Origin: Chloranthus sessilifolius
Lineage: Eukaryota; Streptophyta; Magnoliopsida; Chloranthales; Chloranthaceae
Assembly (NCBI GenBank): GCA_021018995.1
Contig: CM037586.1
Coordinates: 145,370,060-145,434,059, forward strand
DNA: 64,000 bases
Direction: 5' to 3'
The position numbers and the translations under genes are program-made. Each line of letters begins with the position of its first letter. The stretch's first letter is position 1. The notes beneath the pieces were generated by a model that was not told the origin of the DNA, made no database searches, and saw only the letters and a program-made list of their open reading frames with translations. Shown here piece by piece: positions 1 through 44,333 of the stretch.

Positions 1-1311
1 TCAAGGGTGTCATACCCACAGGAAAGCGCATAATTAAATTAATTTTAAAAGAGAAAAAGATGCCCAAGGAAGTACCAAGAGAGAAAACGTTGATTCGCTA
101 AACAATTACTACACGCTACTATAACAATAAACGTAAAGCAATCTAGGCAAGGACAAATGATGACAATTGGAAAGATGATTAAGGAGTTTGCTAACCCTAG
201 ATTTGTAACTTCTCTACAATTAATCTCACGATTTCATACCACATCAAAATACCATCATTTATCAAGAAGAAAAATGAATCGTAAAGAACGTGGCTATTGA
301 TCCGGCATACCCTATCCAAAAACTATGACTCAACCTACTGCGGTATGAATCATGTAAAATGCATAGCGTATATCAAAATTCTAAATCACGGTAGTAAGAA
401 GCAATCACTCTGCAGCCTAGATCGGCCTACAAGAACAGATCTAGATGGAATGACCCTTTTATGGTTGTCGATAACCAAGATCGACGGCTATAAATGAGCA
501 TTCGATGATATTTAATTAAACATACACTTTTAATAGAATGATTCCATAACAATGATAAGATATTGTAAAATTAATAGTAAAACAGTTACTTAACTAGGGG
601 TCGCTTCCTCCTTGAACGAGGGAGTTTAGCCGCTCATCCTCTATCTACAAGCCTGTTGTAAACCAGAAGCCATCATCTAATCATGCACATTTATTTATCA
701 AAATATCTCTCCTTACAGTGCTTTGTTCCTAATTATAAACTATCATTCACAAGAAACTGTAAAGGAAAAGCTATGAAAACCTAGGTACAATCTACCAAAA
801 GAGAAAACCTAAGAAAAATCTATTGAGAGAGAGCTAGGAGAACCCCCAATCCTAAGCCGTAGTATTCATTTTATAGGAAGTGGGCAAGACAACTTCCCAA
901 AATAGGCTCAATCGATTGAAAGTCCATTCTCAATCGATTGAGTTCAAATTTACTTTTTGGCAACCATATTCAAATTTGAATTCCAATTTAAAGTAGAGGG
1001 AAAAAGCTATCTTTCTGGTCAATCGATTGAGATTTGGTTTTCAATCGATTGACACATAAGGGTAAGATCTTCATTCTCCTTATGGATGTTGGGCCAATTA
1101 ATTATTTTCATGGATTTCGATGCTTTTGCTGACTTCTTGGTCCAATGTTCTTATGTAACCCTTAATTATCCTCTTTTACGCACTTTGAAGATTCAATGGT
1201 CAGAAACACCTGAAATCAGTAAAATTAGATAACAGCCGTTAGATATCTTTCATCGGATAGCTAAATGCTAGTATTAGAGTGTGAAATATAGTCATATTTT
1301 GGCACAGATCA
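1..1311 (-). repeat. E1 3' LTR (window start cuts about 56 bp)
   Basis: It matches 27331-28019 plus 40817-41436 throughout. The inner edge ends CAGATCA at 1311 and is followed by TACCCCCAAATCC, which on the minus strand is the purine-rich primer for plus-strand synthesis. Two palindrome pairs lie at 908-941 and 1019-1052. The comparison with the 5' LTR implies that about 56 bp are missing to the left. Confidence 0.85.
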
Positions 1312-3181
1312 TACCCCCAAATCCACACTTTGTTAGTCCTCGAGCAAAGAGAAGGAGAATTTATTAATAATTAACAAATAAAATGAATACCACTTTCGTA
1401 GGAAACACGATTGCATTTAGCCTATGCAATAAACCTTTAAACCCCTAGGTGATCTCTAGTGGAGGAGTTGTGTCTCCTGAAGGTTTTTAGTGAAGATACC
1501 TACAAACTTCATAAACTAATAAATTCAAGAATTATTGTCATGCCCTTAGGTAGTTAAATGTCTGTGAAATTTTTTTTTATAAGATGCCCCCGGCCATGCT
1601 GATTTTATCACTGCTCATTAATTCAATTCATTGTTTTTCCAATAACTCATGATTCCTGCCTAGAGTATCGTGCATTTACCACTGCTAAAATTCTTTCATC
1701 AGGGAATAAGTTTAAACTAGGAATCTTTAGATCCCATGTCTTGACTCAATCCTCACCGTAGGTATGCACTCAAAATGAAATTGCTCCGATGAATGATTTA
1801 CTATTTGCTCCCATGTGAGAGAGACACAAAAAGGTCTCACATGAAATAAGAAAGATGGTGCATCACAGAATTAAAAGAAATCTCATGGGGAAAGATATTT
1901 GTATCCTAAGCACATTATATCAAGCACCATAGACATTGCACTATCACTCTCCACAAGATATTTACCACTCATGATTGGATAAAAAATGTCTTTTTCAAGG
2001 TTGTAACGGGGCTCGAGTAAAGTTCAAGAAAGAAAGGAGAAATTAGATTTCAAATTTCTCTGAGAAACTAGAAAAAGAACTACAATTTGCTTTTCTAATT
2101 TTTCACTTTTTCTTTCTTGGATTTTTCAGAATTTCCTTTTTTCAAATCATCAATTTTTCTCCTTCTTTTCTTTTCTTTTTAACAACACCTTATGTTTTTC
2201 ACATATTTCTCATTTCTTTCCCTTTTTATTCATGTATTTTTCTGCCATATGCTCCTTACAAGTATTACTTTCATGACTCTCTTTTCTTACTCTCATCCCT
2301 CTTTTTTAATTTCTCAAAGATTGAGGGATAAGATTTTTCAAATTGGTGTGGGGTATGGTTAATATAGTTTAACAAAGAATATTTTAGGATAAAATTTTTC
2401 AATCAAGACTCAAAAGGGGGTGCAACAAGATAAATCAATATATGGTGAGATATTTTGGGCATAAATGAGCCAAAAATGGCCTTTGATCATTTCCTCATAT
2501 GATGGTAATGATGCCTATTTGCCTTGAGTTCACACACAATGAGTTCTAGCTTATTGATATAAAACATGCTAAATTAACAAATCAAGATAAGATATATGAG
2601 ATTTCAACAATTAAGCATGAAATTTAAAGATACTCTAAAAATTTTCAACACTCATCAAAAATGAGGAAGAAGTTCCAAAGCTTACTGGATTTTAGTCATT
2701 CTTTAGGATCTTAAGATTTCAAGCTCTAGACTTGATTCTCAGACTTTGGAATTAAAGCATGGTGATGGTGCAAGATTTTTCGGACATGGATCATGAAAAT
2801 CAGCATTTTAACTTGTACTAAAATTAATGAGCATTTGTAGAATAAACATGGTGCGATGACAATTTCTAAAAGAATTTCCAGTCATCTAACACTTCAAGGT
2901 CATGAGACCACAATTCAAAATTTATGAGTTCACTGGAGATCAGTCAATCGATTGACTCAATGACCTCAATCGATTGACTGATGCAAGCTTCCAATAGGTT
3001 ATAAGGCCCACAATTCTGTTGTCAATCGATTGATTCTTTCAAATCAATCGATTGACATCCTTTAACCTGCTGAACGCTTCTAGGATAATGTCTATTAGTC
3101 AATCGATTGACTCAATGGTTTCAATCGATTGAATGATACACTTTACGAACTCCAAAAATAGCCCTTGAAAAAAAAATATAA

Positions 3182-3217
<36 letters not shown>

Positions 3218-3562
3218 CATTTATTATTTTTTTTTAATTCTCTAAACATGAACTTCTCACCCCCAAACCTGTTATGTCCAATGTCCTCATTGGCTTGATT
3301 TTTGAAGGTGTATGGGACCCCCAAACCTGTTAAATGCAATCAAGAACCAAAGGGCAGACCAGGTGAAAAGTATTGTAACATGGGCATCAAAACATTTAAA
3401 CGAAGATTAAATTTTCGTTAATAATGTGTAATTTTCTACACTTATTGAAAGCAGAAAGAGACTATTCTAGTGCACTAATAAAAAGAACCTACTCTAAGGC
3501 ATTAAAAGGAAAATAAACTCTAAAATACTCTAAAATCTAGACCCTAAACTAACTCCTATCCC
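1312..3562 (-). other. E1 3' untranslated region with purine tract, T-rich block and palindromes
   Basis: No credible reading frame. The polypurine tract (minus strand GGATTTGGGGGTA) touches the LTR at 1312-1324. Bases 1330-3400 align with the E2 3' region (15075-17000), including the shared passage around the TAGGTGATC motif and a pyrimidine-rich run near 2090-2300. Three palindrome pairs occupy 2944-2977, 3022-3055 and 3099-3132. A TA microsatellite lies near 3190-3218. Confidence 0.6.
3188..3219. repeat. (TA)n microsatellite
   Basis: A run of alternating T and A within the E1 3' untranslated region, directly followed by an A/T-rich stretch. Confidence 0.9.
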
Positions 3563-5732
3563 TTAGTCATCATTGGCAGCCATCCCTTGCGTTGGCCTTG
3601 GAAACATCAATCGCCACATCTCTTCGGTGATGTCGACTCCACCTGATGAAGGAACTGGTGCATGAGGTGGTGATGGTGGCGTGAGAGATGTTGATTCTAA
3701 ATCAATGACCTCAAACTTTGAGAAATCGAGAGGTGGTCGAGGCGAGTGGTATCGCGTACGCTTTCGGGCCGGTTCCGCCAATCTCCTAACCGCCAATCGA
3801 GTACGATACTTGATTGATTCCATCTCAGCAAGTTAAGGGAGGTTGAATGATTTTCTTGACTAAAGGGATGATTTGAAAAAACTAACCTAAAGAATGGTTA
3901 AATAAAGAAGAAATTTCCTAAAACACGACACTCTAAAGATGAACTCGAATCTGGATTTTCGGGATGAATGACGTGTTCTTTCAGAAGTTTGCATTTGTTA
4001 ATCGATTGAGAATTATTTTGGGAAAGGTTCACTTGGTATGGGCCAAAACTAGTTTTTCACAAACTTTTCGATTCAGGCAATCGAAGTAGTTTTGGAAATT
4101 TTTTATTCCTGACAGAAAGAATTTTATGTCCATATAGGCTTCAATCGATTGAAATATTCAATTCAATCGATTGACTCTATCCATGTGCACTGCCAGAATC
4201 AGATAAATCCGTATGAGTTTTGCCATGGGTCTCAGTTGATCGATTGAGGAATGCTTCTCAATCGATTGACAATTTAAATTTCCTTGCGAGATTTCAGCAC
4301 TTAAAAATCTACTCAATCGATTGAAAAATTACTCTCAATTGATTGACTGATGAAATTGTGCACCAATCCAAAATTACACAGAAAAAATAACACACCAAAC
4401 ATACCAACTTTTCATTCAACCAATTTGATTTGATTACAAAAGGTCATCCCTAATATTGCAGAATCCAGATTAACCAAAAGAAAATACTACATCCTAACAC
4501 AAACTATGATTAATTAAACACACAAAGATAAAAAGAACACAAACTACTAAACTAAACATAAAAAAAACTAAACTAGCCATCATCATCATCATCATCGAGA
4601 TCTCCCTCTCCATCCATTACCGCTCGCGTTCCTGCGATGAAGTGGCCGGCTTGCCCCAGGAATGACTCTGGGACAATCCGCATGAGAAGGGAACTCTAAA
4701 ATCGGGACTGTCGATTGATACCTCCAACTATTGCACTCAACCCATTCAGCCATGTCTCAAGGCGAGCAACTGCTGCATCGGCGTTAAAATCAGGGACCTC
4801 TTCAGGACGAGGTCGTCGAATGCCGCCACGTTGGCATTGTGCGGGGTTTGGTCGGGGAAGAGGAGGTATCTCATCAACATCGAGAGGCGGTGGTGTAACT
4901 CTTAAAATGGCTTTGATGCTTTTGTTCCACACATTCATGTCATAATAGTAGAACTACATATCACCCATTTCTTCATCATCATAAATCGAGCACCCGACCT
5001 GGTCCAACAAATACATGACATAGTGCGGAAAGTGGAGAAGGATAGCTTCCCATTTGCGTGGTGTAGTGGTGGTAGTGATGTTGTTGTGACACCTCCACAT
5101 TTCCTCCAGCATCAAACCAGGTGCGTTGAACCAAGTGTTCATGTGGGCCGCATAGAGTGCTTCCACCCTGTTCTTTGTCCTCTCACTTTTAATACCGTGT
5201 GGAAGTAAGTTGTTGGACATCACTATGTCCCAAAACAGTATATCCATTGGTAGAACTGCGCGCTTTGTTGGCATTCCCGAGTCGTGCCTTCAACCACACA
5301 TATTGTTTATCATGAACTCTTGACTAAGATCTACAGCTGGATCGATATGATGATTCAGTGGCGAACAATGTAGAAGTTGAATGCATGGGCGAGATCAGCG
5401 GCATGCAGATTGTATGACCAGTTATCGATCCACAAGCGGATGAATGCAAAACCCGTAGGAGATTGTAATGTTGACACCCATTCCATATTTTGGCAAAAGA
5501 GGCGAATCAGACGCAAGGAAACATCGATGGGAGGAGGTGTGAGTAGCATTTCCAGTTGCAGGGCTTTGATGAACTCAATGGAAAACATTGCTTCGGCGAC
5601 ACGATGAAACTTTGTAAGATCGAAGAAATTTTCGGTTTGACATTGCTGGACCACGTACTCGTTGTTCAGGATACGCATGGGGTTGTTGTCAGGACGGGGT
5701 GGTTGGTAGTTCATAGGTCTAGGTGCTGCCAT
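3563..5732 (-). pseudogene. E1 additional 3' reading frame (plant transposon-protein-like), broken
   Basis: Four minus-strand pieces follow each other: 5732-5355 (125 aa, starts MAAPRPMNYQPPRPD), 5274-4954, 4938-4696 (same frame as the previous piece, one stop between them) and 3823-3563 (C-terminal, ends MAANDD). The protein has proline/arginine-rich ends and a helical middle with LIRLFCQNM, LPHGIKSER and RVEALYAAHMNTW. This layout recalls the additional ORFs often annotated in plants as 'putative plant transposon protein' and matches, in order and some motifs (LYAA after an ER..RV helix), the extra frame of E3 at 31380-32410. It lies downstream of integrase on the same strand. Function is unknown. 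At least one frameshift (near 5300) and one stop make it a pseudogene. Domain identity is a judgement from pattern, not from a search. Confidence 0.5.
3840..4690. other. E1 spacer with palindrome pairs
   Basis: Separates the C-terminal and upstream parts of the additional frame, without a convincing reading frame of its own. Palindrome pairs lie near 4142-4175, 4237-4270 and 4313-4346, each with a ten-base spacer. There is a short CAT repeat near 4578-4596. It could be an intron or an old insertion, because the flanking pieces read as one protein. Confidence 0.4.
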
Positions 5733-5799
5733 TTCGATCGTACGAGGAGAATTTTATAAGATATGAAAGCTCGGTTGAATTTGCAGGAAGCTTGTGAAG

Positions 5800-6413
5800 A
5801 AGGGGACCACAGGTGTTCCCTTTTTATATTTCTCTCGTCAATCGATTGAGTCATGGACTTCAATCGATTGAAGTGAACCACGTCGCGGGAATTGCAATAG
5901 GCATTTGGGATGTGGATGCGACGTGATACAACCATTCATGCAACCTTAATGTTGATCGATTGATACCTTGGTGTCAATCGATCGACATTAAGTTTTTCGC
6001 GAAAAGTCGCAATGTTTGACATCTTGGGAACTTGTGGCTTTAAGTAGCATGTCAGGTCAATCGATTGAGGGGTTAGTCTCAATCGATTGACATTATGATG
6101 ACTTTAGATTTTTCCATCACCGAAAAGATGCGTCGATTGACGCTTCAGTTTCGAAAATCGGCCATCAATTCAAGGCTATGTCAATCGATCGAAATTGAAT
6201 TTTCAATCGATTGACCTCAATATAGTGTCGATCGGTATGGCACACATTTAAAGAGGTGCAATGATGTTTGAACCGAAACATTAATCGATTGAGAAGGATA
6301 ATTCTCAATCAATTGAGAAAAACACAAGTTCAATCGATTGACTTTCTTTCAAAATCAATCGATTAAGGCAAACTCTTGACTTCTAACACAGAATTAAAAT
6401 ACACTGGGTTGCC
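5800..6413. other. E1 palindrome-rich spacer between additional frame and truncated LTR
   Basis: Carries six paired TCAATCGATTGA-type palindromes. Four pairs (starts near 5838, 5952, 6058, 6180) have exactly ten bases between members. The two pairs closest to the LTR (near 6281 and 6330) are longer by two and three bases and have degenerate members. No gene. Confidence 0.6.
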
Positions 6414-7725
6414 TGATCGATTTTAAATTGTACCCTTGCAAGTGCACAAGATCAGTTGTAGCACGGTAAAATCAAGGGTGTCGAACCCACAGGGAAACGC
6501 AAAATTTAATTAATCCTTAAAGAGATTTAAAACACCCAAGGAAGTACCAAGGGCGAAAGTTTAATTTGCTAAATAATTACCACACTATTCTAGATGTAAG
6601 AAAAATAACTAATCTAAGCAAGACAATTTCTGATAAATAAAATGACAATTCTATGAATGAACAAGAAATTTGTTATCCCATATTTATAACCTTTCTACCA
6701 TTAAACCCATAATTCCATAGCACATCAATCACACCATCATTTATCTAGAAAAATGAATCGTAAGAAAACATGATCATCATTCCGGCATACCCTATCTAAA
6801 AACGACGACTCAGCCTATCATTATGGTATGCATCATATAAAAATTATAGCGTATCTCAAGATTCTTAAATCACGACCATGAACATATAATCACTCTGCGG
6901 CCCAGATCAGCCTGCGGGTACAGATCTGGCGATTATGGTCATTGATAACGTAGATCAACGATCATAATAAAGTATTCAAAAGATATTCAATTTAAGCATA
7001 CTTTTTAAGAGAATGATTCCATAATGAAATTAAGAGACTGTGGAGTTAATCATAAAAATGTTACTTATCTAGGGATCACATCTCCTTGAACAAATGATTT
7101 AGCCGCTCATCCTTGGTGTGCGATCTCGTTGTAAACTCGAAGCCATTCTCTTAAATATATACTTTCTATTTATCACCAAAGATCTTTTTACAATGCTTTT
7201 CCTAAATACAATCTATAATTCCACAAACTGTAAAAGAAAAGAAATATAAAAGCTTAAGTACAATCTACCCCAGAGAAAACCCTAAAAAGAAAAAGAAAGA
7301 ATGTGAGCCCAAGAGTGAGAGAAGGGATGGAGAAGATATATCTAAAATAAAGCCATAACTTTTTTTATATAGGGGCAAGCAAAACATTTCCCTAATTACC
7401 TCAATCAATTGAAAATTCTTTCTCAATCGATTGAGCTCAAATTTGAAAAAGAGGGCAAAACTATCTCTCTTGTCAATGGATTGACACTTGGTTCTCAATC
7501 GATTGACATATATGGGTAAAGTCTCCATTCTCCTTGTGGATGTTGAGCTACTTTATGGATTTCGATGCTTCTTATGACCTTTTTGATCTACAGTTCTTGC
7601 GTAACCCTTAATTGTTCTCTTTTATGTTTAATAACGATCCAACGGTCAGAAACACCTGTAAACATTAAAACTCCATAACAACCATCAGATGCTTTCATCA
7701 GCTAGCTAAATGTAGAAATTAAGGT
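6414..7725 (-). repeat. Truncated Athila-type LTR, third subfamily
   Basis: Starts TGATCGATTTTAAATTG like the other Athila LTRs here and follows them base for base in order (insertion of GGCATACCCTATCTAAAAA, the CTCAGCCTAT box, palindromes near 7404-7437 and 7474-7507). It stops near 7725 about 30 bp short of the expected CAGATCA end. Beyond this point the sequence is integrase C-terminus, so the LTR end and whatever followed are deleted. It is more different from both E1 LTRs than they are from each other, so it is a separate insertion or recombination product. Confidence 0.75.
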
Positions 7726-11410: not shown

Positions 11411-12611
11411 TGATCGGTGCTGAAATATGACTATATTTTACACCTTAATTCCTACATTTAGTTATTTGATGAGAGCATCTAACGGCTGTTATATACTTTT
11501 AGTGATTGCAGGTGTTTCTGACTATTAGATCTCCAAAGAGCATAAAAGATGATAATTAAAGGTTACACAAGAACAGTGGACTAAGATGCCAAAAGAAGCA
11601 TCGAAATCTATGAATTAGCCTAGCATCCACCAGAGAATGAAGATCTTGCCCCTATGTGTCAATCGATTGAAGACCAACTCTCAATCGATTGACCAGAAAG
11701 ATAACTTTTTCCTCTACTTCAAATTTGAATTCAAATTCGAATTTGGTCGCCAAATTAGTAGATTTGGACTCAATCGATTGAGCCTATTATGGAAAATGTC
11801 TTGCCTGCTCCCTATAAAAAAAGCTACAGCTTAAGGTTAAGGGCTCTCTCTTTTGCTCTTAGGTTCTTCTTCTCTTAGTAGATTGTACCTAGATTTTGAG
11901 TTCTTCTTTTACAACTTTTGAAGCATAGTTTGTACATAGGAACAAAGCATTGTAAAGAGAAATCTTGTGATAAATAAGAGTGCATGCTTAAGATGCTGGC
12001 TTCTGTTACAAGTGTGTGCTTAATTGAATATCATCGAGTGCTCATTTACAGCCATTGATCGTGGTTATCAACGACCGTAAAAGAGTCATTCTATCTAGAT
12101 CTGTTCATGTAGGCTGATCTAGGCTATAGAATGATTGTTTCATCATTGTTGTGATTTAAAATTTTGAGATACGCTATACTTTTTACATGATTCATACCGA
12201 AATGATAGGCTGAGTTATAGTTTTTAGATAGGGTATGCCTGATCAATAGTCACGTTCTTTTCGATTCATTTTCTTCTTGATAAATGATGGTATTTTGACG
12301 CATTATGAAATTGTGAGTTTAATTGTGGAGAAGTTACGAATCTAAGGTTAGCAAACTCCTTAATCATTTTTTAAATTGTCATTTTCTTTACCATAATTTA
12401 TTCTTTCTTAGATTAATTTACTATTATTGCTCTAGAATCGTATGGTAATTGTTTAGCAAATTGACTTTCTCTCCCTTGGTACTTCCTTAGGCATCTTTTT
12501 CTTTTTAAGAATTAATTTAATTTTGCGCTTCCCTGTGGGTATGACACTCTTGATTTTACCGTGCTACAACCGATCTTGTGTACTTATAAGGGTACAATTT
12601 AAAATCGATCA
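11411..12611 (+). repeat. Solo Athila-type LTR in opposite orientation
   Basis: Begins TGATCGGTGCTGAAATATG and ends TTTAAAATCGATCA, the reverse complement order of the other LTRs in the window. 1201 bp, full length. Palindromes at about 11660-11693 keep the ten-base spacer. Flanks are AACAT and TACTT, so there is no clean 5-bp duplication. The E2 homologue shows that the target was continuous protease/gag linker. It is closer to the E1 LTRs than to the E2 LTRs. Confidence 0.85.
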
Positions 12612-13504: not shown

Positions 13505-15057
13505 TGATCGATTTTAAGTGTAACCCTTGCAAGTACACAAGATCTATTGTAGTATTGCAAGAACAAGGGTGTCGAACCCACAGGGAAACGTGAATTTTAA
13601 TTAATTCTTTCAGAGATTTAAAAACGTCCCCAAGGAAGTGCCAAGGGGCAGATTCAATTTACCAAAAATTTATCACACTTTTCCTAAATGCAAGAGAAAT
13701 AAATTAATCTAAACAATTAATTGCTGATGAATCTAAGAGCAGTATTTAAAGATGATCAAGGAATATGCTACCCCATATTTGTACCCCTTTTCTATCATTA
13801 AAACCCACAGTTTCATTAAAACCTCATTCACACCATTATTCATCTAGAAAAATGATTCGTAATAAAACGTGATCATCAATCCGGCATACCCTATCTAAAA
13901 ATAATAACTCAGCCTATCATTACGGTATGAGTCATATAAAAAGCATAGCATATCTCATGATGTTTAGATCACGACAGTAAATGCATAATCGCTCTACAGC
14001 CTAGATCAGCCTGCAGGTCCAGATCTAGCGATTACGGCCGTTGATACGCGCAATCAACGGTCATATCAAGCATTTAATATATTTTCAATAACACAAACTT
14101 TTAGCAAAATGATTCCATGATGACATAAATAGACTGTGGTATTAATCATAAAAAATTGCTACTTATCTGGGGATCGCATCTTCCCCGATCAACTGATTTA
14201 GCCGCTCATCTTTGGTGTATGATCTCCTTATTCATTCAAAGTCATTTCACTTTTCATTTCTTTCAAAAGATCTTTATTTATAATGCCTTTTCCTAAATAC
14301 AATCTATGCTTTCATGAATGTAAAAGAAAGACAATGCAAATCCTAAGTACAATCTACCCAGATGGAACCCTAGAAGAAGGAGAAGAGAAGACCCTTGAAA
14401 AGATACCCCAGAAGAGTCTAAAACCAAAAATAATAATAATGAATAATAAACCCCCCAAAAATTCTCCTCCCTCGAAGTGTTTGATTTGGCTTTAAATAAT
14501 AGCCAAGTCGCAGAAGTTCCCTGGCGCGAAAAGTCAGGGTCGATTAATCGACCCTATAGGGTCAATTAATCGACCCACCAAAAATCCCTAAAAATCTGCT
14601 TTAGAGAGTCAATTTCGTGTCAGACTACTGTTGCCCCTCGATTAATCGAGCAAAAGGGTCGATGCATCGACCTCCCAGATTTTCGTGAATTCTAGCCCAC
14701 TTTTTACATCAGACACTACTTCGATATTTCAGCCATATCTTTCTACTCCGAACTCGGATTGACATGCTTCTTGTGGCGTTGGAAAGCTGATGACGAGCTC
14801 TACAACGTTTATGTTTTAGAAATTTCCTGAATCTGGTGTCGTGAAGGTCCAAATTGAGCTGCAAGTCTCACTAAGTTCTCGATAACCTAAGGTTACAGTG
14901 TTTTGACATTATTTTCGGAATCTTGGGTTGTTTTCTGCACTTTGCTTGTATTTACCTGAAACACTTCAAATCTAGTAATTCTCATTAGATAGCTTTTATC
15001 GGATAGCCAAATATAGGTATTTAGGAGTGAAATATTATCATATTTCACTACTCATCA
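13505..15057 (-). repeat. E2 3' LTR
   Basis: 1553 bp, TGATCGATTTTAAGTG to CACTACTCATCA. It has GGTCGATTAATCGACC-type palindromes near 14539-14576, one 22-bp unit more than the 5' LTR, and a TCGATGCATCGA version near 14661. Confidence 0.93.
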
Positions 15058-22947: not shown

Positions 22948-23906
22948 GGCTTCAGTATGATGATACTGATTCCTCTGGATTCTACGATTCTCTTTACAAG
23001 ATCTTTCGATCTCAAGATTAAACGGTTGCAGATGTGGGTGATGAGATCGAGTAAAACTCATGCACCAACACTCACAACAAGGATTGATGAATCCACAACA
23101 AACCCACAAAATTTAGTTTCAATCGATTGAAGCAAGCACACACAAATTTTTAAACAAATGACTTTATCAGTCAATCTATTGAAAAATTATTCTCAATCGA
23201 TTGAGGTTCAAAGAGTCAAAGCAAGTCAACACAGATTTTGCAGCTAAGATGGCAAACAACAGAGCTCTTGTCAATCGATTGACAGAGGAATGTCAATCGA
23301 TTGAAAGAAACCTGGGAATTCACAGAGAATGATATCCCAGTCTCAATCGAAAAGAAGAGAAATTATTTTTTTTAATTTTTTTAAAATTTTATATTGTAAA
23401 ATTAAATTAAAATTCGAATTAAATTTTTATTTTTTTTTTTAAAATTTGAATTTCAAAAATAAAAATTAAATTCAAAAATTAAAATTTAAAATTTAAATTT
23501 CAAAATTAAAATTAAAAAAAAAATTCAAATTTTAAAACCTAAAGGCAATCCTACAAAATCCTATACAATCTTACCTAAAAGAAAAAAAGAAGGGAGAGAA
23601 TAAAAAGATTCCTACAAATCCTAAAACAAGTAGTCCTATAAAAATTAATAACTAGATTTTAGGAAATCCTACAAGATATTTTCTAAAAGAGGAAGATAAG
23701 GAAAAAGAAACTCCTACAAAATCTAAATTAAGAAGTCCTAAAAACCTCTACTTCCTAAAAGAACTCCACAAAATCTTACTAAAGAGAAGAAAAATAAGAG
23801 AAAGAAGATTTTGCAAATCAAAAATCTAAAAAAAATTATTAAATTTTTTTTTTTTTTTTACTACTCACAACTGATATCTTCCCAAATTAATCAAAATTTC
23901 GCCGAT
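22948..23906 (-). other. E2 5' leader
   Basis: Between primer site and gag. Palindromes TCAATCGATTGA at about 23118, 23170-23203 and 23270-23303, then a strongly A/T-rich stretch (23350-23540) of AAATTT and AATTTA words, then a purine-rich block. No gene. Confidence 0.6.
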
Positions 23907-23925
23907 TTCCCTGGCAACGGCGTAA
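23907..23925 (-). promoter_or_regulatory. E2 primer-binding site (tRNA-Asp type)
   Basis: Minus strand TTACGCCGTTGCCAGGGAA, six bases from the LTR. The Athila primer site is complementary to the 3' end of tRNA-Asp and normally reads close to TGGCGCCGTTGCCGGGGA, with a few mismatches here. Confidence 0.75.
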
Positions 23926-23931
23926 AAAACT

Positions 23932-26392: not shown

Positions 26393-27248
26393 GGTTTCAG
26401 TGTGATGACGCTGAAGCCTATGGTTTCTACGATTCACCCTACAAGACCTTTCAATCTCACAATTCAACAGTTGTAGATGTGGGTTATGAGATCGGGTAAA
26501 GCATATACACCAACACACCCAAGACAAGAATTATCAAGTCCACAATAAATTCACAAATAAAGCACTTCAAATTAAATCGATTGAATTAATAGACTCAATC
26601 AATTGAAGAATACACAATAGTGATCCAGCTAAAAATTTATCAGTCAATCGATTGATGCATTAAAATTGATCGATTGAGGTTCAAGATTCTGGCTGGACAG
26701 AATCAGAAATTCAGCTAAATTTGTACACAGCAAAAGTCTAGTCAATCGATTGAAACGGAAAGGCCAATCGATTTATAGAATCCCAAAAGTTTCTACAATG
26801 ACAAACTGACACTAAAACCCCATAACCCAATCGATTAGTGGACAATAGTCAAAATCCGAACAGATTAATAATTTTTTATTTTTTTTTCGGTATTCAAAAT
26901 TCAAAAATTTTTAAATTTTAAAAATTTTAAATTCAAATTTTGAATTTTAAATTTAAAATTTAAAATTCAAATTTGAAAATTCAGAATTAAAAAAAAATTA
27001 AAATTCAAAATTTTAAAATTTCGAATTCAAAAATTCAAAAATTCAAATTTTAAGAAATTAAGTTATTGAAATTTCAAAATTAAACAAACCAAAACAACCG
27101 ATCGATTGATTCTTTCAAATCAATCGATTGATAAGACAATGAGCAGCTAGCACAGAACCCAGTTGATCGATTGAAGAAGATATCTCAATTGATTGACTGT
27201 CAAATAAAGAACACAGATCTCTTTACAAATCAATAAAATTACGTCGCT
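26393..27248 (-). other. E1 5' leader
   Basis: Holds palindrome pairs near 26576, 26643, 26740, 27104 and 27164 with ten-base spacers, and an A/T-rich low-complexity block (26870-27080). No gene. Confidence 0.6.
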
Positions 27249-28019: not shown

Positions 28020-30679
28020 TGTGACAGCCCGGATTTCGGCACCCCGAAACCCGTGCCATCAACACGATCATCTTGACCGTGCCCCTTAACTATGCACGGA
28101 ACACTGGTATATCAAACATAGAAAGAAGTAAGAACAACTTGCGGAATTTAAATCTAATTAGAAATACTTTTCAAAAGACAGTTCTACCCTCATGCCCCTA
28201 CATGAAGGGAGAACCGATCCGAACCATCGATGATATAAATCATCACAGATGGTTCGCCCCAAAGGAATAATCCAAACTCTATACATATACATGTTTTCAC
28301 AAAATAAAGGCTTGACATACCAAGCCGTACAATCTCTACTCAAAACTCCTCAAAGTAGCACAACGGAGTCCTCTAGAAGAAGTCCTCTGGAGGTGGCTCC
28401 TCAAAGAAAGTCCGACTCACGGATCAACTCCCCCAAACCTCAAAATGCTACTAATGGACCTGCGACGTATAGTCTATAGGGTGAGCTACATCCTAGCCCA
28501 ATAGGGAACAAACACTGCTGAACATATAAGTTATAACTCACATATATTCTATGATATACCATGCATGATGTAACTATGCAGTTGTTGATAAAACAATTAA
28601 AAGCATTCGTTCGTTGATTTCTTATGTTTTCATTTACTCATGAAAAATGCTTTGAAAAGGCCTAAAGCAAAACTTAAACTTTCAACTTAAGTAATCCCAG
28701 CAATATAGCATCGAGCCCCGATGAGCTACCCTTCATCGTCATCTATATAGATAGCTTTTAATGTATTCCCCGAATACCATATAGTACCCAAGCCCTTTCA
28801 CGGGATTGGTGGCGGGTTTCACTTATCTCAACGGATAAGCCTGACCGGCCTACGGTTTCGGCCACAACAGACGGCCACGGATATCCTGCCGTGTCGGGTC
28901 GTGGATATCCCGCCACGTCGGTGGGGTAACCTAAGGAACCTCAAATAACAAAAATATCGTGCCTTACATATAGTTATTCACCGTAGGTGTGCTATCTTAT
29001 ATCAGTTAGGCCCTATCAAACATGATTCAATCTGTGGATACATCCCTGGGATGTATCCATTAACTTGCATCACACCTGATGCTCTTATCTCTTTACTTCT
29101 TCATCCCCTGGGGATGGCTCATTCGTTTACTCTTATGAATGTCACACACACACACTTTTCACAATTCTTTGAGCAGTAAAAATAATTGAATTGAAATTTA
29201 TATCACTACATACATGCTCTTGTAAAATAAAGTACATGTTCAAGGTGTTCCCTACCTCAAGTCTTTACTTGTTCAATGCATCAAGGTCCCACGTGGCTCC
29301 TTGTGCACTAGCTTACACGTACCACCTATGTTACCACATAACAGGTGAAACACATCACAAAGGATGTAATAAAGAAGGTATAAGACCCTCCAAGAATCTT
29401 GAAGTCAAACTTAAAAGTCAACAAAATTCATCCCAGTCGATTAATCGAAATCCCAAATCGATTAATCGAACCTGGTTCGATTAATCGATTTCCAAAATCG
29501 ATTAATCGAAGGTCAATATCGATTAATCGAAGTAATTTCGATTAATCGAAATTCTCCTTTTCGCAAAGTAAACTCACAGTCAATCGAAGTTTCCGTTCGA
29601 TTAATCGAATCCAGTTTCGATTAATCGAAATCTTCTTTTCGCAAAGACACTTACTATTCGAACAGTTCGAGTTTCCATTCGATTAATCGAATTCTGTTTC
29701 GATTAATCGAATTCTTCTGTTCGCAAAGTTCTCTTACAATTCGAACAGTTCGAGTTTCTATTCGATTAATCGAATTCAGTTTCGATTAATCGAATCTCTC
29801 CTTTTCGCAAAGTACACTTACTGTTCGAACAGTTGACTTTCACAAGTCGATTAATCGATCCCAATTCGATTAATCGAAAACTAAATCGATTAATCGAAAT
29901 CCCATTTCGATTAGTCGATTTTTCCTTAAATCATTTCCTCCAACCCTTGGGGTCCACTGGAGGTTCCCAGTCGATTAATCGATTTTCAAATCGATTAATC
30001 GAAATCCAAATTCGATTAATCGAAATCCAATTCGATTAATCGAAATCGTGTCTTCTGACCTTTCAACTTCCTGGCCAATTTCGACATCAAACCCAATTTC
30101 GATTAATCGAAATTGTCGTTCAACCTTTCGAGTGTTCTTCCCAATCTTTCCCATACTTTTCCTCTATTTTCTAAACCATTATCCTATGATTTAACCCACA
30201 TTTAACCACAACTTAACCCCTATGATCTATGCATCTTATTTACAAGAATTTACCTTGGATAGATCTCAAGTTGATTTCTATCGATAGTTGGAAGGCTAGG
30301 GTTTCTAGCTTTGGCTCTAACGGATCCCTTGCGTCGAATCCGGCCTCCTTAATGCTTGACTCCTTCTTCCAAACAGTTGCAATAACTCTTCTCTCACTCC
30401 TCTCTTTCTCTCTCTTCTTTACTTCTCTCAACCACAAAAACATGAAAGTTAGGGTTTTCACCCTTTTATCTTATTTCTTTTCTCGGTGTGGAACACATAC
30501 ACACCTCGGTATGTTACTCTACACACTCTCTATCTCTCCATTCTTCTACACCGGGTTCACACATCACATCCGCTCATCTCACATTAAGTTCATCTTTGAA
30601 CTATCTTATGGTCAAACCTAAGACCAATCGGGCACGGATCCCGAGGTCATAGTTTAACGTGATTTTTAGGGCTATTACA
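28020..30679 (-). repeat. E3 3' LTR
   Basis: 2660 bp. It holds the AGGGTGAGCTACATCCTAG box (28478-28496), hairpins with a CCCTGGG core (29036-29058, 29102-29116), a cluster of TTCGATTAATCGAA palindromes (29432-30110) and paired GGATATCC boxes (28876-28905). Confidence 0.92.
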
Positions 30680-30690
30680 TCCTCCCCACC
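30680..30690 (-). promoter_or_regulatory. E3 polypurine tract
   Basis: Minus strand GGTGGGGAGGA directly before the LTR TGTAATAGCCC, preceded by TTTTCGAGGCGAAAATTCCC, the usual end of a Tekay internal region. Confidence 0.85.
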
Positions 30691-31379: not shown

Positions 31380-32410
31380 TCAAGTGGGACCTGCGGGGGT
31401 GGTGGGGGTGGTGGCGGGGCTACACGCTGGCCGCTGGGCTGTTGGGCGGAGCGGGACCCGAGCTGGTAGGGTCCGCTTCAACAGGTTGTAGCTACGGGTC
31501 CATGAAGACTTTGTGAATGTCTTCACGCGATCCGTAGCCCTCACCTCGTGAGGTGAGATAGTGTAGGAGGGATCGTTGGAGTAGCACTCCAACATGCTTG
31601 AGATGAGCCGAGCATACGGCATCTTCTCCTTGGGCCGCATGTTGCCCTTCATCAGTTTAGTCTTGATGTACCGCATCCCCTCAAGGATGACCTTGGTAGC
31701 ATAGAAGGCCGCGTAAAGTGCATGTTGCACTTTGTCGACACGCTCAGTGTCGTGGCGCATCGGGTAAAGGTTGCATTTGATTATGGAGTCGAGCATCCAC
31801 ATGTAGGGTGGAAGATCAACCCTCTTGATGGAAATGCCCGACCCCTTCTTGCCATTTGTCATGAGGGTCATGACTTCCTCAAATCGGGGGTCTTCCACAA
31901 AGGGTGGAAATAGGGTAGTCTCGGGGGTGAACTCGAGGTAGCACTCGAGCACCTCGTGAATGTGACGCCGAGTGATCGTGTAGAGACGACCCTCGATCTT
32001 GGTGATGATGCAGTCGTCGGTAGGGCCATTGGTTAGCCCTTGGTAGAATAATCTCACCAATCTAGGGTAGTAGGAACCCCGGATTGGTTTGAGAAGATTG
32101 CCGAGACCGCATTGTTTATGTAGTTTTGAGCCCATCGGGTCGGTGAAAAGGGTTGGGTCGATGGTATATTCGACCTCAAGAGGGCTGCCCACCACTGCTT
32201 GGTTGCTCCACGTTGGTGGGTGGTGGTGGCATGGGGTGGATTGGAAGACTCACAGAGATGCGCCGAACCGGAGGTGGTCCCCGATCCCGACGGTGACGGA
32301 GTCCTCACCGGCGATGGGGTAGGTGGTGGTGGTGCGGCGTTCTTACGCCTAACCGGCAACTTGGAGGTTGCCTTCTTCGAAGACAAACGGGTTTTGGGCG
32401 GCATTTTCAC
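31380..32410 (-). pseudogene. E3 additional 3' reading frame (plant transposon-protein-like)
   Basis: Two overlapping minus-strand frames: 32410-32054 (118 aa, starts MKMPPKTRLSSKKATSKLPV, a basic Pro/Ser-rich N-terminus) and 32195-31380 (271 aa). The overlap points to one frameshift in a protein of roughly 350 aa. The second part has SYYPRLVRLFYQGL, IEGRLYTITRRHIHEVLEC, LPPYMWMLDSIIK and KVQHALYAAFYATKVILEGM. This is the pattern of the 'putative plant transposon protein' family found beside plant retroelements, and it parallels the E1 frame at 3563-5732. It sits between chromodomain and 3' LTR on the element's sense strand. Function is unknown. Base composition is GC-richer than the rest of E3, which would fit capture from elsewhere. 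Confidence 0.6.
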
Positions 32411-33280
32411 TAAACTAGGGTTTATCTACTTCTAATGAAAGAAAAAGTTCGATTCTAGGGTTTACCGTGGTTTTCGAAGGCGAATACGGTAGATTGTGGG
32501 CGCGAATCGGCGGAAAACCCAAACCCTAGGGCACTTTCGGTTGGTTGGAGAAGAAGGAGAAGATGAAACGCCCAAAAAATCCCAAGCCAAATGATTTGAA
32601 TGGGAAATGAAATCCCAAATTTATTTATATAGCCATGCGGCTTAATCGAAATTCCATTTCGATTAATCAAATTCAAAACTAGGTTAAGTCGCGTAAGAAA
32701 TCGATTAATCGATTTCTCAAATCGATTAATCGAAAATAAAATTCGATTAATCAAAAATATTTCGATTAATCGAAATCGTGTTTGTTTAAAAATTTAAAAT
32801 TTTGAGCTCACTGGCGCGTGCCAGTCGATTAATCGAAATTCATTTCGATTAATCGAAATCTCAAAATCGATTAATCGAACTTAGTTTGGATTAACCGAAA
32901 TCGTGCAAATACTCCAAAAATTTTCCAAAATTTCTTAAGTATTCGATTAATCGAAATCCCATTTCGATTAATCGAAATTTCTTTCTATGCATTTTCTAAC
33001 TCAACTTTTCATTTCCAGTCACTGGCACATGCCAGTCGACTAATCGAACAAGATCGATTAATCGAAATTCCAAATCGATTAATCGATTTGAAATTCGATT
33101 AATCGATTTTGCCCAAATTTCTGAAATTTCAATCTCTTATTTCTTTTTACTATTTTGACAATTCATGATGATTGGATCAAAATTTCCATTGAAATACAAG
33201 TATAGTGGAGATTTCACAACACGCTTTGTGGTTTACATTGCATTCTCACGTCGTTGGAAACAAGGTTTGGTATTGTTCTT
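32411..33280. other. E3 3' region with TTCGATTAATCGAA palindromes
   Basis: No gene. A second palindrome cluster outside the LTR, roughly 32640-33110, with 12 or more TCGATTAATCGA copies, some with one mismatch. Confidence 0.6.
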
Positions 33281-36640: not shown

Positions 36641-36672
36641 TAATGCATGCACCTTTTTCCATCTAAAATTTT

Positions 36673-38117: not shown

Positions 38118-38118
38118 C

Positions 38119-40816: not shown

Positions 40817-41436
40817 TTACAATACTTTGTTCCTAATTACAAACTATCATTCACAAGAAATGTAAAGGAAAAGCTATGAAAACTTAGGTACAATCCACCA
40901 AGAGAGAAAACCTAAGAAAAATCTATTGAGAGAGAGCTAGGAGAACCCCTAACCCTAAGCCGTAGTATTGATTTTATAGGGAGCGGGCAAGACAACTTTT
41001 CAAAATAGGCTCAATCGATTGAAAGTCCATTCTCAATCGATTGAGTTCAAATTTACTTTTTGGCGATCATATTCAAATTTGAACTCAAATTTGAAGTAGA
41101 AGGAAAAAGCTGTCTTTCTGGTCAATCGATTGAGATTTGGTTTTCAATCGATTGAGATTTGGTTTTCAATCGATTGACACATAAGGGTAAGATCTTCATT
41201 CTCCTTGTGGATGCTGAGCTAATCAATTATTTTCACGGATTTCGATGCTTCTGCTGACTTCTTGGTCCAATGTTCTTGTGTAACCCTTAATTATCCTCTT
41301 TTACGCTCTTTGAAGATCCAATGGTCAGAAACACCTGAAATCAGTAAAACTAGACAACAGCCATCAGATAGCTTTCATCGGATAGCTAAATATTAGTATT
41401 AGGGTGCGAAATATAGTCATATTTCGACACAGATCA
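40817..41436 (-). repeat. E1 5' LTR, right part (after E3)
   Basis: Continues the LTR from 28019 (TACAATACTTTGTTCC). Palindrome arrays near 41010-41043 and 41122-41177. The second array has three members where the 3' LTR has two. Ends CAGATCA at 41436. Confidence 0.88.
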
Positions 41437-41723: not shown

Positions 41724-44333
41724 TGTAACGATCCAAAAATTCTGAACAAGAACCTGACTACTTTGATATGCGTGCTCAGCACGAAAATCGAGACAAATTT
41801 AAAAATTTATAATCAATATTATTAGAAATAAGATTAGCCCATAGTTAAATAAAATCATGTACGACTTCATGTGTAAGTCTGAGGCTAGGAAGATGTCGAT
41901 GCAGCATGTTACGCCGTAGCGACTATGTTCGTGCTCCACACTGAAGTTTAAATTTGGAGGAGACTGAAATATCAGAGATATTTCAGGTCATTAGCTTATA
42001 AGAGAAGGAATGGGATCTGGGATGTTCATCTTCCACCTCCTTCTTCTTGTTTCTGTATCTAATAAACCCTAAGCTAGGAGAAGAAGGTTTAGTTGGTTTT
42101 TCAAAGAAACGTGTGTGAGAGAACTTAGGTTAGTGATCACTTGATTTGAGAGTGGGCAATTGACGTTGATACGTCGAATCTTCTTGGCAGAAGTGTGCTA
42201 TCACTACGTGAAGAAGCGGTGCCACTGATTTCCATTTTCGAGTCAAGGGGGGGTGACAAACCCCAGACCCCGGATCCGAATCCTTCCCGGATCGCGTTTG
42301 CCGAAACCCTGAAAGAGCCCAATTTGAGGTGATCTTTTATGTTTAATAAGGACAAGGTTAAAGCCTCATGTGTGTGTGTGTGTATAGGTGTGTGTGAGTG
42401 GTTGTTAGAAACCATGAATGATAAGGGGTTAAAATGGGTTAAAGGAGGTGACCGCCATTAATGACAGAGAACTGTCATTATTGATCGATCAATACTGGAT
42501 TGATCGATCAATGAGAGGCATTGATCGATCAATATGTATAAGCGTTAAGTGGGAACAGTAGGGGCATCTTTCTAAAAGTTCAGTGCCCGAGAGTATTGAT
42601 CGATCAATTTGTTAATTGATCGATCAATTCTGAGCATTGATCGATCATAGAAAGAGTGATCGATCAATGAAAAAGATTGATTGATCAATAAGGGTATTGA
42701 TCGATCAATGAAAAGATTTATCGATCAATAAGGGCATTGATTGATCAATCTATATAAAGTTAGTGTGAATTGATCGATCAACTAGGCTAGTGATCGATCA
42801 ATTTTCCTCTGTCAAATGTGAAGAATAAGAGGCTATTGATCGATCAATTGAAGCATTGATCGATCAATGAGATGGATTGATCGATCAATCAAGGCTATTG
42901 ATCGATCAATTAACCTTGATCACCTGTGAGTTTTGTGAAGGGTTGAACGATCAATGAGATCATTGATCGATCAATGAGGTGGATTGATCGATCAATCAAG
43001 GCTGTTGATCGATCAATCACCCCTGTTTTTGACCTGTTTTAATTTTGTAAATTAAGTGCTACTAAACACCGCGATAGTTAATGTTCTGACATCCCTGACA
43101 CCTAGTGTACTATATTTATAGTCCAGGATCAGACCTTGACGCTCTGAAAAGCTTTGAATTTACTTAGAAAGAGGTCTGATCTAAGGTAGGGGAAATCCAA
43201 TCTAAAATATTTTTTACTATGATTTCATTATTCCTTCATATCTACACCCTGATATCTGTCTTAACAAGCATGTTTACATATCATAAATCTCTGGTTTATT
43301 TCCTATTTTGATATTCTGAAACCTGCTTCTGATTTCTGTTATCTGATTTGTGAGGTCTATGTGTGTATGTGATTTAATGATTTAACCAGATGATCCCCAC
43401 CGACTCGGCGGTATATCCGTGCCTGGCACACTTCTGCATCTACTTTGTTAATCCCTCGACATAATTGCACTCTATAGATGAGGTATTATTGCATCATGAA
43501 ATTATTCATGTGAACGACGATTGGTTGGGGTTTCCTATCGGTAAATTCCTTATTACTCCGTGTTATATATTTACGGGAGTTTCTTAAGTTAGAAAAATAT
43601 ATACAATTTAAGTCACCGATTTTACACATGTATAGCATTTGTTTCTTATTTAAAAGCTCAGTATTTGATCTGATTTTGCTTTGTCTGTACGTTCTGATTT
43701 GATTTCCTGCTTGAGATATCATATCTTGCATATTCAATATATTTTTTGTTGGGATTCTTCTATTGAGCTTAGATGTAGCTCACTCTGTTTCTATAAAAAA
43801 TTATAGGTTCTGAGGCTAGAGCTCTCGGCACCGAGAGCAATCCAAATTACCAGCCTGATCCAGAGGCTGAGGCTGAGGACGAGGAGACTGACATCCAGGC
43901 GGACGATTTTTATCCATAGTCTGGGTACTTGAGTATTTCATTTTGGGATTTTTGTATGATACTCTGGATTATTGTGTGCCTGGTGGCCACCATCTGTATT
44001 TAGTATTATTGTAGACGTTGTATTTCTTTGTATTATTATACATTCTATCGGAATCATTATTAGGAACCATTGTTTTGGGTGATGGATGTCCATTACCAGT
44101 GGTTCTTCTTGGTTCTTTTTTGGGACTGTATATTCTTTTGTCTTTATATAGATGCTTTGTTATTGTTTTATTTTATTTTACGAGCCTTGTATGATGGCTC
44201 GATCTGTCACTACTGGACAGTGTCTGCTTTGATTTTCGCTAGGCGAGCAGACACTCTGTGATTGTCCTGGGGATCATCCAGAGCATGTTCCTGATGGCAC
44301 GGATTTTCGAACATGAAAATTCGGGCTGTCACA
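41724..44333 (+). repeat. E4: solo LTR of a Tekay-type chromovirus
   Basis: 2610 bp, TGTAACGATCC to GGGCTGTCACA, duplication ATTAG (41719-41723, 44334-44338). No gag-pol. Contains about 20 TTGATCGATCAA-type palindromes (42482-43020), the block GACGATTGGTTGGGGTTTCC (43517-43536) shared with E5, and the conserved acidic reading frame at 43806-43919. Confidence 0.92.
43806..43919 (+). CDS. Conserved 37-codon acidic reading frame in the E4 LTR
   Basis: Begins GSEARALGTESNPNYQPDP, then EAEAEDEETDIQADDFYP and stop. The E5 frame at 51621-51734 has the same length with no indel. From codon 8 on I count nine synonymous differences against four conservative amino-acid changes (D/N twice, V/I, E/D). 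No ATG starts it: it is probably the last exon of a spliced LTR transcript, since TTATAG precedes it. No known domain. It could be the C-terminus of a small acidic protein, or the similarity could be due to recent common descent under little selection. Confidence 0.4.
   Translation, partial: GSEARALGTESNPNYQPDPEAEAEDEETDIQADDFYP

What the first reader, a model, noticed from the sequence alone, without database searches (positions are those of the whole stretch)
908..6361. Paired perfect palindromes held at exactly 22 bp in the Athila element
The 12-bp perfect palindrome TCAATCGATTGA recurs through E1 non-coding DNA, almost always as a pair: palindrome, ten variable bases, palindrome. I checked pairs starting at 908, 1019, 2944, 3022, 3099, about 4142, 4237, 4313, 5838, 5952, 6058 and 6180. 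All have a ten-base spacer (22 bp centre to centre) while the spacer sequences are all different. Only the two pairs near 6281 and 6330 deviate (by 2 and 3 bp). The same rule holds in the E1 and E2 leaders (23170, 23270, 26576, 26643, 26740, 27104, 27164), in the truncated LTR (7404, 7474) and in the solo LTR (11660). A fixed distance with a free spacer, on neutral-looking DNA with broken genes, suggests a two-site protein contact on one helix face, or a 12-bp stem with ten-base loop in the RNA.
Basis: partly seen in the sequence, partly recalled or inferred. Interest (0 to 1): 0.88.

Follow-up and report, generated by a model that had tools for sequence, protein, structure and literature searches.

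The report
Paired palindromes in plant retrotransposons
Several different families of jumping genes in a plant genome carry short mirror-symmetric DNA words held about two turns of the double helix apart, which looks like a shared way of seating a pair of DNA-binding proteins on their control regions.

Summary
Confirmed and extended. The window holds 25 TCAATCGATTGA pairs at exactly 22 bp; three neighbour distances differ (24, 25, 25). The host genome (2.17 Gb) holds 18,872 exact pairs with a 10-base spacer, against 921 for spacers 0-9 and 3,210 for 11-31. Among 40 Athila copies palindromes are 92% alike, spacers 78%, other DNA 80%; units change length in 4 of 160 cases, background windows in 32% on average. 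Two further palindromes form runs in other repeats of this window, mostly 19-21 bp apart: TCGATTAATCGA (a chromovirus; 104,328 exact pairs genome-wide) and TTGATCGATCAA (25,142). TCAATCGATTGA also sits in a Copia-like LTR. Athila sites lie in LTRs, the leader, and beside an extra reading frame under purifying selection. Best reading: symmetric duplex-DNA sites for a dimeric nuclear factor bound in pairs. The binder is unknown. Palindromic arrays are known from Sireviruses, so this is a new variant of a known kind. Complementary spacer ends remain unexplained.

The parts
908..1052 (.). Two TCAATCGATTGA pairs (908/930, 1019/1041) in the first part of an Athila LTR on the - strand, about 256-400 bp inside it (LTR end near 1308 read by eye)
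2944..3132 (.). Three pairs at 22 bp between the extra reading frame and the 3' LTR of the Athila copy E1
4141..4346 (.). Three pairs at 22 bp (two with mismatches), downstream of the extra reading frame
4954..5753 (-). Remains of the extra 3' reading frame of Athila E1 (frames 5355-5753 and 4954-5289, broken here); Transposase_32 (PF20167) match of 20.3 bits, below the cut-off of 45; relatives in fetched loci have dN/dS 0.05-0.22 where it could be estimated
5838..6214 (.). Four pairs at 22 bp (5838, 5952, 6057, 6181) just upstream of the extra reading frame; sequence and spacing conserved in 40 copies
6281..6366 (.). Chain of four palindromes at 24, 25, 25 bp here (spacers mostly 12, 13, 12 in the 40 copies): the conserved exception to the 22-bp rule
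7401..7506 (.). Two pairs (one mismatch each) in an LTR that interrupts the element
11659..11781 (.). One pair plus a single palindrome in an inverted solo LTR
14540..14670 (.). TCGATTAATCGA at 14540 and 14638, a one-mismatch form at 14562 (22 bp on) and TCGATGCATCGA at 14659 (21 bp on) in the LTR of Athila E2: a related LTR with different palindromes
23119..23304 (.). [quoted passage not shown]
26573..27196 (.). Five pairs (26573, 26644, 26742, 27098, 27163) in the leader of a further Athila copy
41011..41177 (.). Pair plus triplet (22, 22) in the far part of an LTR that the nested element interrupts
29437..30110 (.). 21 TCGATTAATCGA (one with a mismatch), 19-21 bp between neighbours within a run, in one LTR of a nested chromovirus; the other LTR has its own set at 39573-40227
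32659..33106 (.). Internal TCGATTAATCGA set between integrase/chromodomain and the extra reading frame of the chromovirus, 410 bp upstream of that frame
31380..32249 (-). Extra reading frame of the chromovirus, 289 aa, Transposase_32-like (38 bits, cut-off 45)
42481..43016 (.). 21 TTGATCGATCAA (up to 1 mismatch; 19-21 bp between neighbours within a run), probably an LTR; a related repeat at 50151-50396 has three GTGATCGATCAC and mixed, non-symmetric forms

Best explanation
The units are cis-regulatory binding sites read as duplex DNA. Each 12-bp palindrome seats one symmetric (dimeric) nuclear DNA-binding protein, and two dimers sit cooperatively about two helical turns apart (22 bp for TCAATCGATTGA; 19-21 bp for TCGATTAATCGA and TTGATCGATCAA). 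The sites lie in the first part of the LTR, in the leader, and upstream of an extra reading frame, so the bound factor most likely drives or protects transcription from both promoters. Shown: the sites, their spacing, the constraint on sequence and length (Athila), the positions, and occurrence in several lineages. Inferred: that a protein binds, that it binds as a dimer, that pairs are cooperative, and that the effect is transcriptional. I think a host transcription factor is the likelier binder (about 0.5, against about 0.3 for an element-encoded one), because the identical site occurs in a Copia-like LTR and the same 10-bp core is printed for the Sirevirus Tnd-1.
For: Sequence constraint: 40 copies, mean pairwise identity 0.916 (144 palindrome positions), 0.782 (78 spacer), 0.812 (60 positions within 6 bases of a palindrome), 0.797 (359 other). 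Spacing constraint: 4 of 160 unit-copies changed length, against a mean of 0.322 and median of 0.400 over 179 overlapping background windows of 34 bp. Position-wise divergence is nearly mirror-symmetric within the 12-mer (0.030/0.028, 0.057/0.066, 0.085/0.062, 0.013/0.013, 0.032/0.004, 0.123/0.106). Genome-wide spacing peaks: 18,872 against 921 and 3,210; 104,328 at spacers 7-9 against 8,148 at 10-26 for TCGATTAATCGA. Other palindromes are symmetric too (TCGATTAATCGA, TTGATCGATCAA, GTGATCGATCAC, TCGATGCATCGA). In six of six Athila copies examined that hold the extra frame (window and five fetched loci) the nearest palindrome lies 9-170 bp upstream of the matched frame. Same 12-mer in a Copia-like LTR, 20 sequences: palindromes 0.923, spacers 0.874, other 0.877. 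Core CAATCGATTG shared with Tnd-1 (ACAATCGATTGT, 8 copies; PMC2829016 Table 3).
Against: No binding, chromatin or expression data. The conserved chain at 6281-6366 has spacings of about 24-25 bp, not two exact turns, and 34 of 256 neighbour distances are 23 (181 are 22, which includes the 20 Copia-like pieces). Some background windows are as length-stable as the units (minimum 0 of 40). Spacer ends pair more than expected, which two separate protein sites do not predict (genome counts G..C 5,933, C..G 2,495, G..G 1,342, C..C 1,354). Parts of the chromovirus arrays are tandem duplications, so their spacings are not all independent. At 50.2 kb three sites are GTGATCGATCAC but three are the non-symmetric GTGATCGATCTA and two GTGATCGATCAA. 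In one LTR pair, which should drift neutrally, palindromes differ at 7 of 261 and other sites at 91 of 2,360 (P 0.49), but inside the array region 7 of 261 against 30 of 413 (P 0.014), so a local mutation effect is not fully excluded. One Transposase_32-like frame (L023) has none of the three palindromes in its 10-kb stretch.
Confidence: 0.66

Rival explanations
1. RNA or single-stranded DNA hairpins: the unit folds as a 12-15 bp stem with a 4-10 base loop, and the folded transcript is what is selected (packaging, dimerisation) or what the host cuts into small RNAs.
For: Spacer first/last bases are complementary in 28 of 57 de-duplicated units (expected 16.2, P 0.0002, best of 28 tests) and in a mean of 20.1 of 33 strict families against 8.8. 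Real spacers fold 1.4 kcal/mol better than shuffled ones (57 units, P 0.0002). One unit (L008:6298) has a paired transversion across the arms. In maize Sireviruses palindrome clusters are small-RNA hotspots (PMC5311732 and PMC10760457, passages).
Against: Arms need not be palindromes themselves in a hairpin, yet here they are. Double changes across the arms pair in 16 of 16 cases, but 10 come from one unit in which the two columns do not covary (G/T 21, G/C 14, A/T 3, A/C 2) and 5 of the other 6 are C>T with G>A, the commonest changes anyway. No clear excess of G.U over A.C in the RNA sense (7 against 5 of 54). Runs of up to six palindromes at 19-21 bp are not hairpin units. With all spacer lengths collapsed the signal is weak (30 of 85 against 22.1).
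Confidence: 0.18
2. Copying artefact: units spread and are kept alike by inverted duplication, template switching during reverse transcription, and tandem duplication, with no function.
For: Complementary spacer ends are what a snap-back template switch would leave. Tandem duplication is visible at 41122-41166, in L006 and in the chromovirus arrays.
Against: Outer flanks are not significantly complementary (22 of 57 against 18.2 at -1/+1). Length is kept while spacer sequence drifts, in copies 79-87% identical to the window. 51 of 86 collapsed spacers have exactly 10 nt, and other lineages use other palindromes at a similar distance.
Confidence: 0.1
3. A special case of the main reading: the element-encoded extra protein (Transposase_32-like) is itself the binder, as VANC is for VANDAL elements: an auto-activating or anti-silencing loop whose site and protein evolve together.
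For: Arrays upstream of that frame in Athila (9-170 bp) and in the chromovirus (410 bp), with different palindromes. The Athila frame is under purifying selection (dN/dS 0.05-0.22 in the 10 of 13 pairs where dS could be estimated) and open over 419 aa in L010. A sunflower Athila extra protein with Transposase_32 similarity has a nuclear localisation signal and a predicted nuclear probability of 0.80 (PMC11728184, passages).
Against: No DNA-binding domain was found; Pfam matches are below the cut-off (38, 20.3, 17.9 and 17.6 bits against 45). The sunflower paper likens the extra proteins to double-stranded-RNA-binding proteins and suggests RNA-silencing control (abstract). The Copia-like element has the same site, and no such frame was seen in the fetched pieces, which cover only part of it. 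L023 holds a Transposase_32-like frame without these palindromes nearby. Selection on a protein says nothing about DNA binding.
Confidence: 0.24

Closest known systems
Sirevirus repeated motifs (RM boxes), Bousios et al. 2010 (PMC2829016; passages and sections 9 and 19 seen)
   Same: Palindromic motif in many copies in the LTR upstream of the promoter and again upstream of the ENV-like gene; flanking sequence free; one of them, Tnd-1, shares the core CAATCGATTG.
   Different: Those are Ty1/Copia Sireviruses with a CGG-CCG core (except Tnd-1), and that paper calls the motif Sirevirus-specific. Here the carriers are Athila, a chromovirus and a Copia-like LTR, and sites are held at a preferred two-turn distance; the parts I saw report no fixed spacing.
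Shared palindrome of maize Copia and Helitron elements (PMC10760457, passages seen)
   Same: One palindromic motif occurring in two unrelated superfamilies (CACCGGACNNNGTCCGGTG).
   Different: Studied as RNA secondary structure and small-RNA source; another sequence; no spacing rule in the passages.
VANC target motifs of VANDAL transposons (PMC5735166, passages seen)
   Same: Short motifs dense in non-coding parts of an element family, differing between families.
   Different: VANDALs are DNA transposons; their motif YAGTATTAY is arrayed in one orientation, and its binder is shown by ChIP-seq and gel shift.
Athila / Tekay additional reading frames (PMC11728184, passages seen)
   Same: Athila 3' extra frame with Transposase_32 similarity.
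   Different: The passages mention no palindromic sites next to the frame, and they suggest a role in RNA silencing.

Membership tests
Athila (Ty3) retrotransposons | Ty3 domain order gag, protease, RT, RNase H, integrase | tested here: met
   PF03732, PF00078, PF17919, PF17917, PF17921 and PF00665 above cut-off in E2 on the - strand; the protease match is below it (19.5 against 24.3 bits)
Athila (Ty3) retrotransposons | Athila place in an RT tree | not tested
Athila (Ty3) retrotransposons | Primer-binding site for tRNA-Asp (recalled feature) | tested here: inconclusive
   Near 23905-23930 the - strand reads close to the recalled site; judged by eye only
Athila (Ty3) retrotransposons | Extra 3' reading frame of the Transposase_32 / ATHILA kind | tested here: inconclusive
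   Match present but below the Pfam cut-off
Chromovirus (element 28019-40816) | Chromodomain after integrase | tested here: inconclusive
   Tf2-1 SH3 76.8 bits (cut-off 30); Chromo 19.2 bits (cut-off 25.1)
Sirevirus RM boxes | Many palindromic copies in the LTR | tested here: met
Sirevirus RM boxes | Additional copies upstream of the ENV-like frame | tested here: met
   Six of six Athila copies examined with the frame, and the chromovirus; that the frame is ENV-like was not shown
Sirevirus RM boxes | CGG-CCG core | tested here: not met
   Centres are ATCGAT or ATTAAT
Sirevirus RM boxes | Carrier is a Ty1/Copia Sirevirus | tested here: not met
   Ty3 elements; the Copia-like LTR was not placed in a lineage
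VANC-type anti-silencing system | Element-encoded protein binds the motif | not testable with these tools
   Needs a binding experiment; structure prediction did not complete
VANC-type anti-silencing system | Motif enriched in non-coding regions of the element | tested here: met
   All 25 window pairs lie outside the frames that gave gag-pol matches
Ty1/Copia (L001) | Copia reverse transcriptase / RNase H | tested here: inconclusive
   No Pfam, PDB or named-protein support for the 92-aa RNase-H-like piece; judged by recalled hallmarks (RNase H end, LTR, PBS TGGTATCAAAGC)

The most novel reading that the evidence does not exclude
A family-specific palindrome code: several Ty3 lineages each encode a nuclear extra protein that reads its own version of N-YR-AT-NN-AT-YR-N at two-turn spacing on the LTR and on the protein's own promoter, making a self-activating or anti-silencing loop; site and protein diverge together, and Copia elements free-ride by carrying the same site. 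The site pattern was noticed after the fact (64 of 4,096 possible 12-bp palindromes fit it).
Probability: 0.19. Interest if true: 0.87.

Novelty: new variant of a known kind. Interest (0 to 1): 0.63.

Why it matters
More than 148,000 exact palindrome pairs at preferred spacing in one plant genome (18,872 + 104,328 + 25,142; many are copies of one another or overlap in runs) hint at one shared rule of retrotransposon control across lineages. The sites are short and defined, so the binder can be fished out directly, and it would show either a host factor that many elements use or a role for the extra Athila-type protein, whose function is unknown. Such tracts may also affect where host factors and small RNAs go in the genome.

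Tried and rejected
RNA-stem covariation looked strong at first (16 of 16 double changes pair, P 0.003; profile correlation 0.98) but was not kept: the loci were mixed in orientation, which forces that correlation, and 10 of the 16 come from one unit without real covariation. Own-palindrome compensation test: 1 of 1 double change in P1 and 0 of 1 in P2, below shuffled means. G.U strand bias: none clear. Extended outer complementarity (ATCAG...CTGAT) seen in some units was not significant after de-duplication. CpG: 0.74 kept at 14 palindrome CpGs against 0.58 at 23 others; both sets were chosen at 0.3 or more, so the contrast is rough. Ten arbitrary 10-kb stretches at five places on C2, C4, C5, C6 hold no TCAATCGATTGA at up to 1 mismatch, though one holds TCGATTAATCGA runs (L020). 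Protein search with the chromovirus extra frame found nothing at E 0.001. The third carrier group (L002, L003, L026) could not be classified. Ten frames of 42-50 kb gave no Pfam match up to E 0.1. The 12-mer is in two papers of the library, both unrelated by the listing; the core CAATCGATTG is in 20 (18 listed), of which by the listing only PMC2829016 bears on retrotransposons. PMC6911290 (retroelements inserting into palindromes) was seen in a listing only and not pursued. Rows dropped: L004 (inside L005) was left out; the 39 same-family copies out. In one search codons with a stop were skipped; for the Transposase_32 part 5 of 7 close copies were used (L006 and one L011 copy left out; 3 of 10 pairs had saturated dS), for the upstream part 3 copies (L006, L008 and L011 left out). 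One search collapsed 337 units to 57; the number of unit families depends on the cut (76, 33). One of the 20 Copia-like sequences (L106) is rearranged at the second palindrome. Homeodomain-like half-sites (CAAT/ATTG) were considered as the binder from memory only and are not claimed.
Full report
WHAT IS THERE. The 12-bp palindrome TCAATCGATTGA occurs 63 times (up to two mismatches) in 64 kb, against 6 expected. Of 28 neighbour distances between 12 and 40 bp, 25 are exactly 22. The own genome (2.17 Gb, 32 contigs) contains 18,872 exact palindrome-N10-palindrome units; all spacers 0-9 together give 921 and 11-31 together 3,210; the reversed pattern gives 0. Per spacer length, that is about 120 times the mean of 11-31. 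These counts include many copies of the same element. In the fetched loci, after collapsing similar spacers, 51 of 86 still have exactly 10 bases; 11 have 11.

WHERE IT SITS. The window is a nest of retroelements. The Athila copies lie on the - strand: gag, RT, RNase H and integrase domains (and a sub-threshold protease) are found in E2 from 22.6 kb down to 17.9 kb, and LTR relatives at 1-1311, 6414-7726, 11411-12619 (inverted), 13504-15057, 23931-25433 and 27275-28020 continued at 40812-41436. Pairs lie in the LTR, about 256-400 bp inside it at 908-1052 (LTR end read by eye); in the leader between 5' LTR and gag (23119-23304; 26573-27196); and in the long region between pol and the 3' LTR, on both sides of an extra reading frame (4954-5753). 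In six of six copies examined that hold this frame (window and five fetched loci) the nearest palindrome is 9-170 bp upstream of its matched start. The frame is broken in the window but open over 419 aa in L010. Between copies dN/dS is 0.05-0.17 for the Transposase_32 part (7 of 10 pairs estimable, five copies) and 0.15-0.22 for the part before it (3 pairs, three copies). Its match to Transposase_32 is below the curated cut-off.

CONSTRAINT. A search with window 5780-6420 scored 40 of 932 candidates; all 40 are near full length, the window itself and 39 others 79-87% identical to it. Aligned, the twelve palindromes have a mean pairwise identity of 0.916 (144 positions), the spacers 0.782 (78), positions within six bases of a palindrome 0.812 (60), the rest 0.797 (359). 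The four 22-bp units changed length in 2, 0, 0 and 2 of 40 copies; 34-bp windows without unit bases did so in 32% on average (median 40%), though some were as stable as the units. So length is kept while the spacer sequence drifts as fast as its surroundings. Divergence is almost mirror-symmetric within the 12-mer and lowest at the AT steps; the commonest changes are C>T and G>A at the central CpG. The chain at 6281-6366 keeps other spacings in most copies, a standing exception.

BEYOND ATHILA. A count of all palindromes in 314 kb of loci (chosen mostly for holding units) shows TCAATCGATTGA as the commonest 12-bp palindrome (312), with TCGATTAATCGA (77) and TTGATCGATCAA (14) next after AT repeats. 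TCGATTAATCGA forms runs at 19-21 bp (63 of 70 neighbour distances, mean 20.3) in the LTRs and in an internal set of a nested Ty3 element, 28019-40816, with an integrase followed by a Tf2-1-type SH3 and a weak chromodomain match. The internal set lies 410 bp upstream of a 289-aa frame that is again Transposase_32-like, below cut-off. Genome-wide there are 104,328 exact pairs with spacers 7-9 and 8,148 with 10-26. TTGATCGATCAA forms runs at 19-21 bp at 42481-43016 (16 of 17 distances), with 25,142 exact pairs genome-wide at spacers 7-9 (its control did not complete). A related repeat at 50.2 kb carries three GTGATCGATCAC, a symmetric variant, but also three GTGATCGATCTA and two GTGATCGATCAA, which are not symmetric; Athila E2 LTRs carry TCGATTAATCGA and TCGATGCATCGA. 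TCAATCGATTGA itself occurs as a triplet (23 and 22 bp) at the start of a Copia-like LTR without a match of 150 bp or more to the window (L001; its relative L014 has 164 bases covered). There 40 of 1,410 candidates were scored, the query's own place included; I aligned 20 sequences, 19 of those plus the query: palindromes 0.923, spacers 0.874, other 0.877. A third, unclassified repeat carries it too (L002, L003, L026).

MECHANISM. Symmetric sites, free spacers of preferred length near two helical turns, and several different symmetric words at a similar distance fit a dimeric protein on duplex DNA, bound in pairs. Position in LTRs and before the extra frame suggests transcriptional control. A hairpin in RNA is not excluded: spacer ends are complementary in 28 of 57 de-duplicated units (expected 16.2), in a mean of 20.1 of 33 strict families (expected 8.8), and genome-wide counts are G..C 5,933, C..G 2,495, G..G 1,342, C..C 1,354 (not independent copies). 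But the arms show almost no independent compensatory change (one paired transversion, L008), there is no clear strand bias, and with all spacer lengths pooled the excess is small (30 of 85 against 22.1). A copying process that leaves inverted ends could explain this residue. I leave it open. Whether the binder is a host factor or the extra protein is not settled: L023 holds a Transposase_32-like frame with none of the three palindromes in 10 kb, and the Copia-like LTR has the site without such a frame in the pieces seen.

KNOWN BACKGROUND. Sirevirus LTRs carry palindromic repeated motifs, also upstream of ENV, said there to be absent from other retrotransposons; Table 3 of PMC2829016 (section read) lists ACAATCGATTGT, 8 copies, for Tnd-1, sharing the 10-bp core found here. 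Later papers describe such clusters in maize as small-RNA hotspots and report one palindrome in both Copia and Helitron elements (PMC5311732, PMC10760457, passages), so sharing across superfamilies has a precedent. In sunflower, an Athila extra protein with Transposase_32 similarity has a nuclear localisation signal, while the authors suggest RNA-silencing control for extra proteins (PMC11728184, passages). VANC proteins show that an element can encode a binder of its own short motifs (PMC5735166, passages). I found no report of this 12-mer in retroelements or of a two-turn spacing rule in plant LTR elements in searches of an open-licence library; Bousios et al. 2016, perhaps the most relevant paper, is not held, so it may contain spacing data I could not see.

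VERDICT. The kind (palindromic cis-arrays in plant retroelements) is known; the preferred two-turn spacing shared by several lineages with different palindromes is the new part.

Noticed in passing
window 29437-40227 and genome-wide: TCGATTAATCGA pairs with spacers 7-9 number 104,328 in this genome, over five times the pairs of the finding's palindrome.
   Followed up: partly
window 42481-43016 and 50151-50396: Related repeats carry TTGATCGATCAA in one place and GTGATCGATCAC, mixed with non-symmetric forms, in the other. Ten frames around and between them gave no Pfam match.
   Followed up: partly
L010:2875-4134 (-): Open 419-aa extra Athila frame; parts of it evolve under purifying selection between copies; the end looks like a coiled coil (by eye).
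   Followed up: partly
L023:6329-6946: A Transposase_32-like frame (31% identical to the chromovirus one) in a stretch without any of the three palindromes.
   Followed up: no
L002, L003, L026: Unclassified repeat with TCAATCGATTGA, TCAATAGATTGA and TCAATGGATTGA; spacers of 4, 7, 10, 13, 14 and 19 seen in L002 and L003: a looser version of the same motif.
   Followed up: no
L006:9450-9549: Five palindromes in a row at 22 bp with alternating spacers, a small tandem array of a two-unit repeat.
   Followed up: no
L084:3640-3950: A tract rich in TCGATCGA-like steps seen through its translation (repeated DRSI), not analysed.
   Followed up: no
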